A stretch of DNA of 64,000 nt from Auricularia sp. M13 (lineage: Eukaryota > Basidiomycota > Agaricomycetes > Auriculariales > Auriculariaceae). Below, piece by piece: positions 40,944-64,000 of the stretch. Numbering within the stretch: the stretch's first letter is position 1; each line of letters begins with the position of its first letter. The DNA lies in assembly GCA_037042915.1 (NCBI GenBank), contig CM073193.1, positions 5,890,001 to 5,954,000 on the forward strand. Direction: 5' to 3'. The notes below the pieces were generated by a model. That model had not been told where the DNA came from. It searched no databases and saw only the letters and a list, made by a program, of their open reading frames with translations. A program made the translations under genes and the position numbers.

Positions 40944-42237
40944 TCACTGCTTTCCACGCAGGAAACCATCGTCGTCTAACGCTTGTTGGGCCGGCGCCTC
41001 CAGAGGCTTTTCTGATTCTACAACGGGCTCGGTTTTCACGGCTTCGGGCGCCGCCTGCTCCTTGGGCACGCCACGGCCTATGCGCTTAGCTCTTGCGAAG
41101 ATGCCGATGTCGCGGTCGAGAATGAAGTTGACGGTGACCATGGGCCAGGACGGGTGCGACGGGATGTTGTCGTAGAACTCGGGCGCAAGCGCACGGAGCG
41201 CGGGCAGGCGCGTCCAGGGGACCGACGGGAAGTCGTGGTGCTCGTTGTGGTAGCCGACGTTGTACGCGAGCACGTTGAGCGGGCCGTAGTACGAGTACGT
41301 CTCCTGGTCCGTGCCGTCCCACAGGAAGTGCTCCGCGATGAAGTGCGCGGCGCACGGGTGCAGGCTGCCCGCGAAGAACGCGGACGCGATGAGGTACAGG
41401 TAGGCGGTGCGGCCCCAGGTCGTTATCAGGAAGTAGTTGAAGACGAGCTGGACGACGACGTTCACGAGATGCCACATTGTCAGCGTCTGCGCGCGGATGA
41501 AGCCCGGGCGCAGGGCGTAGAACAAGATCTGGAATGTGCAGAAGAAGACCTTGCCAAGCACGTTGTTCAGGCAGAGCAGCTCGATGCGCGACGGCAGGTC
41601 GGTGTCGATGCCGTCTTCGCCCAGAAACTTGTGGTGCTCAATGTGATAGCCCTGGAATGACAGTTTCAGCGAAACTTCAGAACGGCGGGGAATGACTGAA
41701 CCTTGAACGCTGCAGCATATGGGATGCCAATAGGTAGGTTCGCGAAGACGGCAAGAAGCTTGTTGGCCTTGATTCCCTTGAATCCGAGGTTGTGCGTGAT
41801 CTCGTGAATGGCAAGGAACAGATTCTGGTTGGCCGTGCCGCCGACGATGTAGGCAGTCGCCAGGAATTTCAAGGACAGAGGGTGCGTGTTGCGGAGGAGA
41901 TACGCTGCCAATATCTGTATGCTCACGACGAGCAGCACTACCCACTTGGTTAGCGGCTCGTGACCCATGAGTTTTGTGACCTGAAAGCTCCTCAGTTTAT
42001 TTACAGGTATTCGGAGCAGTTGGCCGGTATACTGACCTCAGGATGAGCCTTAATGATAGCCATGCGCCGTGAACGATGCGGTTCCTCGGTCATAAGCCAC
42101 AGAAAGTCTCGCGGGTCCTGCGGCGCCTGGCGCACGTTCACCGAAGAGTCCAATGGGTTTGTAGCCAGCGTGCGCCGCGGCAGCTTGGCCCAATCCTCCT
42201 TGGTCTCTGCACCGCCGAATAAGCTGAAGTCGACCAT
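40944..42237 (-). CDS. Dihydroceramide/sphingolipid delta(4)-desaturase
   Basis: Three exons (42237-42037, 41980-41702, 41651-40944) give 395 residues. The N-terminus MVDFSLFGGAETKEDWAKLP carries the Lipid-DES-type domain, and the three histidine boxes of membrane diiron desaturases are clear: HEITH, HIEHH (in GYHIEHHKFLGEDGIDTDLP) and HNEHHDFPSVPWTRLP. Four hydrophobic segments separate them. The C-terminal tail is Pro/Glu-rich and extends about 40 residues beyond the core. The enzyme inserts the delta-4 trans double bond into dihydroceramide in the ER; in fungi the product feeds glucosylceramide synthesis. Homologous to DEGS1 of animals and DES of yeasts. The family is recognised with high certainty. 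Confidence 0.95.
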
Positions 42238-58579: not shown

Positions 58580-60519
58580 TCAGATGGTGGAGGTCTCGAG
58601 ATTGCAACCATACGATCCGGTAGCTTCCCGGAGGAAGCTGATCGTATGGTTCCCCAGCGTGCGAGACTGGAATCCTGCCTCGCAATAGTAACTGGAACAT
58701 GCGTCAGGGGCTAGAATGTCGTCGCGGATAAGAGTCTCACAAGTAATCTAACGATCGGGACGCGGGGCGTTAGCGGTGTGCGAAGTGCTGAGGGGTTGAA
58801 ACCTACAGAGCCACTTCCTGCGGAAGATTTCGAGCTCACGGGCGCCGCCCTCGCCGTTCATGACGTCCGGATACTGAATCCTCAGCTCCGGCGCGATTAC
58901 ATCATCGAAACAAGCGTCGAAGCGCCTTGCCCATTCGCGGAGTGTGCGAGAATAGTGGGGGCCAATGTTATCGACGGTGTCGACGATGAACCGGGCCCCG
59001 GATCCCTTGTGGATGCCATCGACGAGCTGGGTCACCGTCGGCAGGAAGCAACCAGGAAATACTGCCAAGTTATTAGCTAAGAGAAAGTCGAACTGAGTGG
59101 CCACATACTCTGCGTGTGGGTGAGCCGCGCGTGCTAGCGCGTCAATGCTGTATACTCACGTATTTCTGAATGAAGTCGATGTTGGTCTCATAAGCCTCAA
59201 TTCCTGAGATACGATCGGTGGAGAGAAGTTGCACCATGTCGCAGAGACTCACGCGTATCAGGCATCGTGCTGACTTGAATGACGCCAACAGCATCGCGAC
59301 GCTTCAAGGCCCAGTTGACGACGCCGAAGTACGTGGGAAGGAACTTCAGCCCGACGTGTTCGATCATCTCGATGCTGACGAAGCGGTCAAACGTGCCTTC
59401 CCACTCCTTTGGGAGCGCGCGATAGTCGAGGAGATGGACGCGAATTTTGTCCTGAAGGCCAGCCGCGGCGATACGCTGCTCGGCCAGCGTCTTCTGCTCC
59501 GACGACAGCGTGATGCTCTCGACCGTGCAGTCGCAATTCGGAACAGACTGAACAGCACGGATAGCGAACTCGCCCCAGCCAGTGCCGATCTCGAGGATGC
59601 GACTGCCGGGCTTGATCTTTAGTCTGCGAAGGATGTGGCGAATCTTGCGCAACTGCGCCTCGTGCAGCTCCTCCGAGTCGTCGCGTGACGAGGCGCAAGT
59701 ACCTGCCAGCGGAGAAGTGCTGAGAACGTGGGAGCCAGTGTCGCCATCGAGCAGATCGCCGTCGAGCTTCTCGAAAATGGCACTCGAGTACATCATGTCG
59801 CGAGAGAGAAACCTGTCAACATGAAAGATGTGATCATGTGGATCGTGCCGTTTATGGGCGATGATGCCACTCACCCTTCAAACATGCAGTTCGAGATGTC
59901 GTAGTGAGCGCTGATGTTGCTGCGTGTAATGCCCAGCGCATTCGTGAACCGGTTCGAGGTGAAGTAATTGGGGATAGCGCTGAGTGCCTTGGAAAGCGTT
60001 CCTTCGATGCGATCCAACTTCTCTCTGTTGAGGAGAAAGATCTAGGCACTTTTCAAGCGTCTGCGAAGAAAGAATGGAAAGCCACAGACCTTGAACACGT
60101 TACGAAGATCCTCCGTACCACATTTTACCTACACAGTGCCTATATTAGGTAGGAAACGCATGCTAAGAGTCGAGGACCCTGCTTACATCGCCCAGCATGT
60201 ACCCTTCCGCAAAGCCGAGACCCCCCATGCATGCCAGGCGCAGCCAGAAGGCGTCTCTCACAACATGCAACTCCGCTGTAGGCCCAGGCCTCTTAATGAG
60301 AGGTGGGAAAACGTGAACGCGCCCGTCTTGCTTGACTACGCGTAGCTGGCCATGATCAAGTTGCTGAAAGGTGGAGACGACGGCTGACTCCGCAAGGTCT
60401 GCGAAAGGAAGCCAACTGCTCTTAAATATCGTGTCGCGCACGCTGCCAAGAAGTGTGTCGGCGAAGGAGGCAAAGGAAACGGCCTGAGAGGTAATGGGAA
60501 GGAGTTGCTGGTGGGTCAT
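58580..60519 (-). CDS. Cyclopropane-fatty-acyl-phospholipid synthase (SAM-dependent)
   Basis: The gene begins MTHQQLLPITSQAVSFASFA. Family blocks follow: LACMGGLGFAEGYMLGDV, SNISAHYDISNCMFEGFLSR, the SAM-binding glycine loop RILEIGTGWGEFAIRAVQ, TLSSEQKTLAEQRI, FDRFVSIEMIEHVG, and VFPGCFLPTVTQLVDGI. The last exon supplies SYYCEAGFQSRTLGNHTISF, restoring the conserved C-terminus after KWLC; its donor AG|GTTTCA at about 58775 is inferred. The enzyme transfers a methylene group from SAM to the double bond of membrane phospholipid acyl chains. Fungal homologues also include C9-methyltransferases of glucosylceramide, but the HYDISN and C-terminal pattern suit CFA synthase. It is divergently paired with a delta-9 desaturase. 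Confidence 0.9.
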
Positions 60520-60855: not shown

Positions 60856-62766
60856 ATGACCTCGACCCCTCCTCCGCCCGGCCACGGTTTCACCAATGGC
60901 AGCGTGTTCTGGGCCTCAAACGCTGTGTTCTTCATTGTCACACATGGTATGGCTATCGTCAGCCTATATGTCTATTCACCAACGCGACTTCCACGTGCCA
61001 CGGTCGTAATGATACCGATCCTATGGCACTTTGCTATGTTCGGGTACGTACAGTATAAGTATTTGCCCTACCGCTCACAGCGCTCGGACTGCCAAGCATT
61101 ACCGTTGGATACCATAGGCTCTGGTCCCACAGATCTTTCCGAGCTGGACGTCTCGTGCGTATGTTCCTCGCCTTCGGAGGGGCGAGCGCCGTGCAAGGTA
61201 AGCCGGTGGTCCGCTCAACTGAAATTATCACAAATACCTAATACATCATGTTTACGTTTCAAGGCTCAATTAAGGTGCCGTCTTTCAGATTTTTTTTTTG
61301 TCTGTTTAACTAATTTGATTGACGGATCATAGTGGTGGTGTGCGTCCAGTCAATAGGAAGTTCGCCGCACTTTCCTAAACGTTCCCAGGCCTGCGCCATC
61401 GTCTGCATCATCGATTTACAGATGATCCTGTGCACGACCCGTAAGCACTCAGTTACTACATATACATGGATTAGACTGAAGCCAATATGAGATACGCCGC
61501 AACGCGCGGGATGCTGTTTGCACACATGGGTTGGATTTTCTTCAAGCCTTCGTATTCGCGCATGAACCTTATAGACCGCGAGGATCTTGAACGAGATCCA
61601 GGTGGGTGGGACTGCCTTCGTTTTCGAGACTGGTCGTACTCAATCAATCCTTCTCGACCAGTCGTACGCTTGCAACACCGCTACTATGGTAAAATTATCA
61701 ATGCGCCGAACGCGTAGATCCCCGTCACTAATACAAACAGCAGTTTCCATCGCATTGTTCATGGGCTTCATCTTTCCGGCACTACTCGGCGCACTGTGGA
61801 ATGATGCTTTGGGCGGCTTCCTGTACGGTGCCGTCTGGAATCGGGTCCTCATCTGGCACTGTACCTTTCTTGTCAACTCGTACGGAATTCTGCCCTTTCC
61901 CTTCTTTTGAGAACTTATTCGAGCAGACTCGCACATTGGCATGGTTTTCAGCCGTACAGCGACGAGGTTACGGCGAGAGGAAACCTTGTGAGTACCTGAT
62001 TCCGCCTCAGATAAAGCTGATCAACTTTCATAGCTACTGGCCATGCTTACCAATGGGGAAGGGAATCACAATTTCGTGAGCAATACGTCTTTGTGTTCGA
62101 ATGAATGTCGTTAACAATACAATGATTAGCACGTGCGATACTTCCAGCTATTATGTCCAGACTCTGAGATCATGTAGCACGCGTTCCCGCACGACTTCAG
62201 AGCCGGAATGCACGCCTCAGAGTACGACCCCAGCAAATGGTTACTCCTGTTTCTGCGCCGGCTGCGTCTTGTTTGGGGTCTTCGACAGGCACGACAGGAA
62301 GACATAGCATGGGCTGTGGAGGATATGAGACGTCGTCACAGTGATGTCAAACCCCTCACCAATGGCTGTGACAACGAGCCTGATGCACCTTCAATGGCGA
62401 TGCCGACATGGAGTCTCCACGACGTACAAGACTTTGTGCACACTGACTGTCGCTGTGCGCTTTTATTAGATGGTTTCGTAATCGACGCAACATCACTCCT
62501 GGGAGACCATGTGCGCTTGCCCCGTTCGTCCTTCTCATCCGCTGATAGTATTTCAGCCTGGCGGGGGCTCAATCATCCGAGCGTATGCCTATCGTGGCGG
62601 ACCCCATACGCAGGGTCAGCATTGCGCCCATCCGGACAAGTGGCTTGAAGGCCAATGGGCGTTTCACGGCGGGTTGAATAATCATTCCCGTGCGGCTAAT
62701 AGACGTGTGAGGGAACTCCGTGTAGCTCGTTTCCAGAGCAGTGCAGAGGACGCTGGATCCGGCTAG
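60856..62766 (+). CDS. OLE1: Stearoyl-CoA (delta-9) desaturase with C-terminal cytochrome b5 domain
   Basis: Thirteen exons join in phase to 427 residues. Histidine box 1 is GYHRLWSHR, box 2 is HRLHHR, and box 3 is GNHNF-H-HAFPHDF. The core also has RGMLFAHMGWIFFKPS and LIWHCTFLVNS. The C-terminus is a cytochrome b5 domain: LLLDGFVIDATSLLGDHPGG and a distal His in FHGGLNNHS. The enzyme makes oleic and palmitoleic acyl-CoA in the ER. Exons: 60856-61043, 61097-61197, 61264-61274 (11 nt), 61333-61339 (7 nt), 61389-61440, 61492-61601, 61662-61688, 61741-61879, 61927-61987, 62034-62075, 62130-62132 (3 nt), 62178-62510, 62557-62766. Introns are 45-66 nt, matching the genome norm. It is the divergent partner of CFA synthase. 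The microexons rest on homology, not on transcripts. Confidence 0.9.
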
Positions 62767-63008: not shown

Positions 63009-63732
63009 ATGTCAGTCGCACCGCAATACGACCGCGTTCCCATAGACGAAGGGGCGCTGGCAGCCATATCTGGGAACGCATCGGCCAGCGTGAAGCGCAC
63101 ACTGTTACAGATGCTGGCGACCCAATGTTTTCCCGGCCTTTTCGGGGCGTCCATAGCGCAAAGCATGCGCATCGTCAAGATCGACCTTGTACCACGTATC
63201 GGAGATCCATCTCGCATTGAGAGCGTTGTGGTTTGCGACGTTACTGTCACACCAGGTTATCGCTCAGACTGCTAATTTGTCACACTGTTTCGACAGCTGA
63301 TAGGACGTCTGACAGATATGATCGACGAGCGGGGTAACTTGGCACACGGTTGCGTTGCTTTCTTCATCGACATGTTCTCAACGTTTCCTATCGTTGTGCA
63401 AGGCGCTCACAAAGGGATGTCGGGCGACCTCATCGGGGTCTCACAGTCTATGAACTTCGTCTTCCACGCCACAGCTCATGTGTACGTCCCATCTTTGGGC
63501 GTCCCTTAACAGTGCTGAAAAATCAATATGTAGAGGAGCGCAGCTTCGAGCGGTATCAACATGCCTGTCTCGTGGAAGTCGCACTATGAGCGCTCGCTGT
63601 GAAGTAAGTGCGTGCCGCGCGCGTCCGCTGGGGCCGACTAATCCCTGATTCCAGGTATGGGACATAACAGGAAATCAGATTATCTGTTCTGCTGTACATG
63701 TTAAGATGGCCCCCTCTCTCCCCAGACTGTAA
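63009..63732 (+). CDS. Acyl-CoA thioesterase, hotdog fold (PaaI/ACOT13-like)
   Basis: Exons 63009-63255, 63304-63481, 63534-63603 and 63655-63732 join in phase to 190 residues. The central helix region reads NLAHGCVAFFIDMFSTFPIV, followed by GVSQSMNFVFHATAHVGAQL, MSARCEVWDITGNQIICSAV and HVKMAPSLPRL, which match the PaaI/ACOT13 thioesterase pattern (HGG replaced by HGC). The enzyme hydrolyses acyl-CoA thioesters, tuning free fatty acid and CoA pools. It follows the delta-9 desaturase in the same direction 240 bp downstream. The first acceptor (CTGATAG|GACG) is chosen to keep frame into GRLTDMIDERGN. Confidence 0.85.
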
Positions 63733-64000
63733 CGTCAGTAATCACCAACCTGATCAAGTCCAGTGGGTCAGCTCAGTCGGCGGGAGAACGTAGCATTGAT
63801 GGCGGTTGATCTGAGGAGCTATCACGTGATGCGGAACTTCATGTCGAACTGTCGGAGTTTGCACCGTCACGTTACCCCGCTGCGTCAACTCAGTGCAGTA
63901 TCTTATATAATCATGTGCTATCCTTGTGTAGACTATGTGGCTATTTATGGCTAAAGGTTTGCCTACGGCCACTTGTAATACGAGGAACTCGCTTGTCAAA
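63733..64000. other. Right-edge spacer
   Basis: The last 268 bp contain no recognisable gene. It may include the 3' end of the thioesterase transcript. Confidence 0.4.

What the first reader, a model, noticed from the sequence alone, without database searches (positions are those of the whole stretch)
61264..62177. Delta-9 desaturase read through 11-, 7- and 3-nt microexons, the smallest encoding one catalytic histidine
The reading frame of the conserved protein can be kept only if three microexons are spliced in: GCTCAATTAAG (61264-61274), TGGTGGT (61333-61339) and CAC (62130-62132). Together the first two give the conserved GSIKWW. The third gives the second histidine of HNF-H-HAFPHDF. The flanking introns (66, 58, 49, 54 and 45 nt) have GT and AG ends and match the normal size here. 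Skipping the 3-nt exon keeps frame but removes a metal-ligand histidine, so splicing could switch enzyme activity on or off. Exons this small are rare and are missed by automatic annotation. Seen: sequence and splice signals. Known: the three histidine boxes of delta-9 desaturases. Inferred: use of the microexons and possible regulation.
Basis: partly seen in the sequence, partly recalled or inferred. Interest (0 to 1): 0.88.

Follow-up and report, generated by a model that had tools for sequence, protein, structure and literature searches.

The report
Tiny exon carrying desaturase iron-binding histidine
A fungal fatty-acid desaturase gene appears to be assembled from thirteen exons, one of them only three letters long and encoding a single iron-binding histidine; a sister gene has the same exon, and many database models of related genes seem to miss that amino acid through annotation error.

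Summary
Window 60856-62766(+) reads as an intact 426-aa acyl-CoA desaturase with 13 exons, including 11-, 7- and 3-nt ones at the stated coordinates; all 12 introns are GT-AG and 45-66 nt. Main support: a paralogue 1.6 Mb away has the same CAC exon, in the same phase, between diverged introns, plus a 5-nt TGGTG exon at the WW site. An uninterrupted 453-aa ORF from a contig of at most 1778 nt, 89% identical to that paralogue, carries HNFHHAF. Of 136 family proteins seen in three capped listings, 11 of 11 that are not annotated gene models have HNFHH or HNYHH, against 21 of 125 annotated models; 80 of 125 lack exactly one residue there. The nearest model, Auricularia subglabra, lacks the residues of all three microexons. 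So the microexons are very probably real, the 3-nt one probably old in Agaricomycetes, and many public models probably wrong there. A splicing on/off switch is not supported; constitutive inclusion fits better. The gene belongs to a paralogous subfamily, not canonical OLE1, whose two copies here have no intron at these sites. No RNA from this gene, and no genomic DNA from other fungi, was available.

The parts
60856..61043 (+). exon 1, start codon at 60856
   Evidence: joins in frame to exon 2 (FG|ITVGYHRLW); a 53-nt intron at the same place in the paralogue
61097..61197 (+). exon 2 (first histidine box, HRLWSH)
61264..61274 (+). microexon 3, 11 nt GCTCAATTAAG (completes G, then SIK)
   Evidence: only parse of 40 giving GSIKWWCLRHR; its upstream intron is absent in the paralogue; A. 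subglabra model lacks these residues
61333..61339 (+). microexon 4, 7 nt TGGTGGT (WW plus first base of C)
   Evidence: paralogue has a 5-nt TGGTG exon here, downstream junction shifted by 2 nt
61389..61440 (+). exon 5 (second histidine box, HRLHH)
61492..61601 (+). exon 6
   Evidence: 110-nt exon in paralogue too
61662..61688 (+). exon 7, 27 nt small exon
   Evidence: 27-nt exon at the same place in the paralogue
61744..61879 (+). exon 8
   Evidence: 136-nt exon in paralogue too
61927..61987 (+). exon 9
   Evidence: 61-nt exon in paralogue too
62034..62075 (+). exon 10, ends in HNF of the third histidine box
   Evidence: 42-nt exon in paralogue too
62076..62129 (+). 54-nt intron before the 3-nt exon
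62130..62132 (+). microexon 11, 3 nt CAC = first His of the HH pair
   Evidence: same CAC exon, phase 0, in the paralogue at G000:C1:7544343-7544345(-); chance 129 of 20000 shuffles; aligns without a gap to HNYHH of SCD1
62133..62177 (+). 45-nt intron after the 3-nt exon
   Evidence: its acceptor is the lowest-scoring AG of the stretch
62178..62510 (+). exon 12, starts HAFPHDF (second His of the HH pair)
62557..62766 (+). exon 13, with stop; joins to exon 12 to form HPGG of a cytochrome b5-like tail
   Evidence: Pfam Cyt-b5 17.4 bits, below its 23.7 cut-off here; 30.0, above it, in the paralogue

Best explanation
This is an intact acyl-CoA desaturase gene of an Agaricomycete paralogous subfamily, spliced from 13 exons with 12 short introns. 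Three exons are 11, 7 and 3 nt. The 3-nt exon CAC supplies the first histidine of the HH pair in the third histidine box (HNFHH), by alignment and spacing the equivalent of His301 of SCD1. It is included constitutively. Because 3 nt cannot hold two splicing complexes at once, the introns are presumably removed one after the other by intron definition, the downstream intron perhaps first since its donor (CAC|gtgcga; CAC|gtgagt in the paralogue) is the strongest in the stretch; either order gives the same product. The 3-nt exon probably predates the duplication of the two genes and dates to early Agaricomycetes; many public gene models of the family omit it. Shown: DNA structure in two genes, reading frame, homology, the pattern in database models. 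Inferred: use in RNA of this gene, splicing order, age, need for catalysis.
For: In-frame parse and intron sizes. Paralogue with the same CAC exon; flanking introns share only 24 of 54 and 21 of 54 aligned columns. P0002, an uninterrupted 453-aa ORF on a contig of at most 1778 nt, 89% identical to the paralogue and running over its 12 intron sites, has SVKWWC and HNFHHAF. 11 of 11 non-annotated family entries have HH versus 21 of 125 annotated models; 80 of 125 lack exactly one residue; Fisher p 2.6e-8, treating entries as independent (lists capped at 120 each). Congeneric models differ among themselves (Trametes and Lentinula each show HH, one-residue deletion, QH and an insertion), as annotation noise would. 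A. subglabra P0001 lacks SIKWWC (18 nt = 11+7) and one H. Profile score 587.2 full, 578.1 without CAC, 552.7 without 11+7, 543.6 without all. SCD1 His298, His301 and His302 are listed as active-site residues (PMC8533217, passages); nine His bind the two irons (PMC10359943, passages).
Against: No transcript of this gene was found: the best listed hit is 69% identical. Only two genes of one genome give DNA evidence. 21 of 125 annotated models have HH; whether they lost the introns or were annotated well is unknown, and 4 of the 15 'other' models have HH after inserted residues. Acceptor 62177 scores lowest of 6 and two of the six sites around the 11- and 7-nt exons score poorly. The profile was built from 10 HH-bearing rows, so its 9-bit preference for HH is partly built in. 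P0001 also departs from the expected frame at the first intron site (extra residues before ITVGYH), so it is a poor model in general. That 'lgn' marks assemblies of archived reads is recalled, not from a call; that those contigs are cDNA is inferred, shown by comparison only for P0002.
Confidence: 0.88

Rival explanations
1. Regulated microexon switch: the 3-nt exon is skipped under some conditions, giving an in-frame HNFHAF protein without one iron ligand, so splicing turns the enzyme off.
For: Skipping keeps frame and uses the same outer sites; 80 of 125 annotated models show the skipped form, some of which may have RNA support that I could not see. A microexon with two protein forms is reported in Trichoderma Xlr2 (PMC11121469, abstract and passages).
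Against: 11 of 11 non-annotated ORFs carry HH, although clustering at 90% identity could hide a minor form. A skipped intron would be 102 nt, outside the 45-66 nt range of all 24 introns of the two genes. The donor after CAC is the strongest in the stretch in both genes.
Confidence: 0.07
2. The subfamily truly has a one-residue-shorter third box (HNFHxF) and the AG-CAC-GT is chance; the 102-nt stretch is a single intron.
For: Most of the annotated models examined read that way (80 of 125); acceptor 62177 is weak but is used in either reading.
Against: Chance 129 of 20000 and 43 of 20000 in two diverged intron sequences; two strong donors in each stretch; congeneric models disagree; all 11 non-annotated ORFs have HH; the residue aligns to an active-site His of SCD1.
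Confidence: 0.03
3. The gene is a decaying paralogue whose odd exon pattern reflects degeneration.
For: Cytochrome b5 tail scores below the Pfam cut-off (17.4 against 23.7 bits); some splice sites score poorly.
Against: The full 426-aa frame is open over 13 exons with all splice dinucleotides intact and all histidine boxes present; 69% identical to the A. subglabra protein over 98%.
Confidence: 0.03

Closest known systems
Conserved, misannotated plant microexons of 1-15 nt (PMC8831610; abstract start and passages seen)
   Same: Tiny, mostly included coding exons, conserved between species, often absent from reference annotations, protein predictions wrong as a result
   Different: Plants; this case is fungal and its omission drops a single metal ligand without changing the frame
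Single-nucleotide exon of Arabidopsis APC11 (PMC4674806; abstract and passages seen)
   Same: Constitutive exon too small for exon definition; removal of the flanking introns one after another proposed
   Different: 1 nt; here 3 nt, frame-neutral, one catalytic residue. That 2015 paper gives 6 nt as the smallest constitutive exon known before it
3-bp microexon of Drosophila homothorax (PMC7392893; search listings with abstract start only)
   Same: Exon of one codon
   Different: Alternatively spliced in an animal transcription factor; here most likely constitutive in a fungal enzyme
Microexons in Phanerochaete chrysosporium P450 genes (PMC1184071; passages seen)
   Same: Agaricomycete genes with microexons and small introns (45-55 bp)
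   Different: Shortest exon reported in the passages is 6 bp; no single-codon exon in what I saw
Stearoyl-CoA desaturase 1, PDB 4zyo / 4ymk / 6wf2
   Same: Same enzyme family, HNYHH third box aligns without a gap
   Different: Animal enzyme; match ends before the b5-like tail; gene structure not compared
Canonical OLE1-like genes in the same genome (L029)
   Same: Desaturase with an HPGG-bearing tail, seen by eye in the frames, not tested with Pfam
   Different: 31-43% identity by piece; GSIRWW and HNFHH are contiguous, no intron there

Membership tests
Acyl-CoA (delta-9 type) membrane desaturase | FA_desaturase domain | tested here: met
   PF00487 52.4 bits, cut-off 29.7; PDB SCD1 E 4.9e-41
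Acyl-CoA (delta-9 type) membrane desaturase | Three histidine boxes (HRLWSH, HRLHH, HNFHH; motif names recalled) | tested here: met
   All present in the spliced model, the third complete only with the 3-nt exon
Acyl-CoA (delta-9 type) membrane desaturase | Double bond placed at C9 of acyl-CoA | not testable with these tools
   Needs expression and product analysis
Canonical OLE1 of this fungus | Closer to canonical OLE1 than to a separate paralogue family | tested here: not met
   31-43% by piece to the two canonical copies, 48-74% by exon piece to the paralogue, 69% to A. subglabra P0001; no tree built
Cytochrome b5 fusion desaturase | C-terminal Cyt-b5 domain | tested here: inconclusive
   17.4 bits, below cut-off 23.7, HPGG present; paralogue 30.0 bits
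Constitutive ultra-small microexon | Exon of 15 nt or less flanked by GT-AG introns | tested here: met
   11, 7 and 3 nt
Constitutive ultra-small microexon | Conserved in a homologous gene | tested here: met
   3-nt exon in the paralogue; a 5-nt exon at the site of the 7-nt one; the 11-nt exon not (intron absent there)
Constitutive ultra-small microexon | Included in mature RNA | tested here: inconclusive
   Inclusion seen in an uninterrupted ORF of a relative of the paralogue; no RNA of this gene
Regulated microexon switch | Inclusion varies with condition | not testable with these tools
   No reads available

The most novel reading that the evidence does not exclude
A single-codon exon encoding an iron-ligand histidine has been kept and constitutively spliced since the early radiation of Agaricomycetes, in a whole desaturase subfamily, so that most public protein models of that subfamily are missing an active-site residue or are garbled there. 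A bolder form, with much lower probability (about 0.07), is that skipping of this exon is a regulated off-switch.
Probability: 0.75. Interest if true: 0.72.

Novelty: new member of a known kind. Interest (0 to 1): 0.62.

Why it matters
If true it is a clean test case for how intron definition handles an exon of one codon in fungi, with a built-in readout (enzyme presumably dead without it). It also means that many Agaricomycete desaturase models in public databases are wrong at the active site: of the 125 annotated models examined, 104 do not read HNFHH or HNYHH and 80 lack exactly one residue there. That would mislead heterologous expression, activity prediction and structure modelling, and suggests that fungal annotation needs the tiny-exon treatment already applied in plants.

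Tried and rejected
DNA from other species: a scan of viral contigs gave one viral contig with a desaturase at 29% identity (L032), not used; a scan of genome contigs gave no relative.

A start for exon 2 at 61081 (after cacag) was considered by hand and dropped: it gives a 37-nt intron and the wrong frame; the accepted junction gives 53 nt and FG|ITVGYHRLW, as in the paralogue.

Stwintron reading (one intron inside another; term recalled): any order of removing the two introns leaves CAC in the product, so it makes no different prediction here; not pursued.

Looking for a skipped isoform in the protein collection: not attempted, since clusters at 90% identity would hide a one-residue difference.

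Structure prediction was not run: the spliced protein is not letter-for-letter in the window, and the gap-free alignment to SCD1 already places the residue. No family tree was built.

No report of a single-codon exon in a fungal desaturase, or of conserved exons under 6 nt in Agaricomycetes, turned up in the searches; most subscription papers are not held, so this is not proof of absence.

Full report
What is there. The window lies in an unnamed 52.1-Mb, 14-contig fungal genome; of the seven best protein matches, five are named as Auricularia, Exidia or Auriculariales. At 60856-62766(+) the sequence reads as one open 426-aa protein if 13 exons are joined; all 12 introns are GT-AG and 45-66 nt. 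The protein is a membrane desaturase (PF00487 52.4 bits; SCD1 4zyo E 4.9e-41), 69% identical to a protein of Auricularia subglabra over 98% of its length.

Is it more than chance? In the 102-nt stretch between HNF and HAFPHDF, AG-CAY-GT with two introns of at least 40 nt arises in 129 of 20000 dinucleotide shuffles; in the paralogue's 105-nt stretch in 43 of 20000. For the 11- and 7-nt exons I tried 40 parses (no, one or two internal exons; introns 40-100 nt except for the full skip); 10 joined to the conserved RHR in frame without a stop, and exactly one gives GSIKWWCLRHR. A second contains GSIKWWC but carries three more residues before LRHR; it uses the same 11-nt exon. A donor matrix trained on the 15 introns of the two genes that do not touch a microexon ranks the two donors around CAC first and second in both genes, far ahead of the rest. 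Results the other way: acceptor 62177 is the lowest of 6 AG in its stretch; donor 61275 is not among the best five of 17, nor acceptor 61332 among the best five of 9. The best AG, 62147, is too close to the inner donor and from exon 10 runs into a TAG. The matrix is small.

The paralogue. A search of the genome with the spliced protein found a second gene of the same subfamily at C1:7543600-7545627(-). Joined by the same logic it gives 458 aa in 13 exons, again with a 3-nt CAC exon between introns of 48 and 54 nt in phase 0, and with a 5-nt TGGTG exon where the window gene has 7 nt. The flanking introns share 24 of 54 and 21 of 54 aligned columns with those of the window gene, so the CAC exon is kept while its introns have drifted. 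The intron that cuts off the 11-nt exon is absent in the paralogue, which has instead one extra intron within its HHR. Two canonical OLE1-like genes at C1:6588-6592 kb have GSIRWW and HNFHH uninterrupted in single frames: the microexons mark the paralogous subfamily, not OLE1.

RNA-like evidence. P0002 is a 453-aa ORF from contigs of at most 1778 nt, 89% identical to the paralogue over 454 aligned columns, and runs without interruption over its 12 intron sites; it has SVKWWC and HNFHHAF. It is not from this genome's gene but from a relative, and is the closest thing to a transcript that I could reach. Its source tag 'lgn' I take, from recall, to mean assemblies of archived reads. No such entry for the window gene is among the listed hits.

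Database pattern. Three searches, each listing its best 120 of 1852, 512 and 486 hits, gave 136 different family proteins. Eleven carry only 'lgn' or 'jgi' as source, that is, they are not annotated gene models; 11 of 11 have HNFHH or HNYHH. Of the other 125, 21 have HH, 80 lack exactly one residue (H-N-F/Y-H-x-F-P with x = A 48, S 27, T 5), 9 have QH and 15 have other insertions (Fisher p 2.6e-8, treating entries as independent, which related species are not). Four of the 15 have HH after the inserted residues. Within genera all forms occur: among Trametes models HH (polyzona), deletion (versicolor, elegans, punicea, sanguinea, meyenii), QH (gibbosa) and an insertion (cingulata); in Lentinula HH (edodes), deletion (detonsa), QH (raphanica), insertion (aciculospora). 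Evolution is unlikely to look like this; prediction programs stumbling over a 3-nt exon would. The deletion form appears in models from at least eight orders looked up: Auriculariales, Sebacinales, Cantharellales, Hymenochaetales, Jaapiales, Russulales, Atheliales, Gloeophyllales, which is why I think the exon is old in Agaricomycetes; the DNA of those species was not seen. At the WW site, of 133 proteins then in hand 104 read as expected, 23 did not and 6 could not be matched; all 11 non-annotated entries read as expected. The A. subglabra model P0001 reads SAVQG-LRHR and HNF-HAF: it lacks the 18 nt of the 11- and 7-nt exons and the 3 nt of CAC. It also has extra residues at the first intron site, so it is a weak model in general.

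How it works. The third box HNFHH aligns without a gap to HNYHH of SCD1, whose His298, His301 and His302 are listed as active-site residues (PMC8533217, passages); nine histidines bind the two irons (PMC10359943, passages). By spacing, the 3-nt exon is the His301 equivalent. Without it the motif HxxHH is broken, so inclusion should be needed for activity (inference). An exon of 3 nt cannot host two splicing complexes at once; removal of the two introns one after another under intron definition was proposed for the 1-nt exon of Arabidopsis APC11 (PMC4674806, passages) and is the natural reading here. The inner donor is the stronger in both genes (7.5 against 5.1; 10.6 against 5.3), so removal of the downstream intron first is my guess. 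Either order yields the same RNA.

Switch or constitutive? The skipped form is what 80 of 125 gene models show, but it is absent from the 11 non-annotated entries, would need a 102-nt intron in genes whose 24 introns are 45-66 nt, and is just what a program without tiny exons would predict. I put regulated skipping at about 7%.

Known and new. Tiny, conserved, misannotated exons are established in plants (PMC8831610, passages), a 3-bp exon in an animal gene (PMC7392893, listings only), microexons down to 6 bp in P450 genes of an Agaricomycete (PMC1184071, passages); [quoted passage not shown] I found no report of this one. It is therefore a new member of a known kind, unusual in its size, its location on a metal ligand, its likely age and its effect on public databases.

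Limits. No RNA from this organism, no genomic DNA from any other Agaricomycete, and substrate and regiospecificity are untested.

Noticed in passing
window 58751-59155(-), 59200-59877(-), with a possible start codon near 60519(-): A cyclopropane-fatty-acid-synthase-like gene (CMAS, 136.4 bits; C-terminal piece 30.3 bits) is transcribed divergently from the desaturase; if its start codon is the one near 60519, read by eye (that piece has no Pfam match), about 336 bp separate the two. A desaturase makes the double bond that such an enzyme would methylate, so a shared pathway is plausible; none of the 11 CMAS matches listed lies near the paralogue.
   Followed up: partly
window 63009-63760(+), approximate: A thioesterase-superfamily gene (4HBT 25.3 bits, cut-off 20.6, on a hand-spliced model) lies just downstream: a possible three-gene lipid cluster.
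   Followed up: partly
window 40947-41996(-): Another FA_desaturase-domain gene (PF00487 66.2 bits) in the same window; it did not come up in the search with the desaturase protein.
   Followed up: no
L029 (G000:C1:6588200-6592200): Two canonical OLE1-like genes lie tail to tail within 4 kb, with very similar C-terminal halves by eye: perhaps a recent duplication or gene conversion.
   Followed up: no
window 61662-61688(+) and paralogue C1:7544798-7544824(-): A 27-nt exon is also shared by both genes.
   Followed up: partly
paralogue G000:C1:7545202-7545206(-): The WW exon is 5 nt (TGGTG) in the paralogue and 7 nt (TGGTGGT) in the window gene: the downstream intron seems to have slid by 2 nt with compensation in the next exon.
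   Followed up: partly
L032 (IMGVR_UViG_3300002144_000640): A viral contig encodes a distant desaturase, 29% identical to the first sequence of the family alignment.
   Followed up: no
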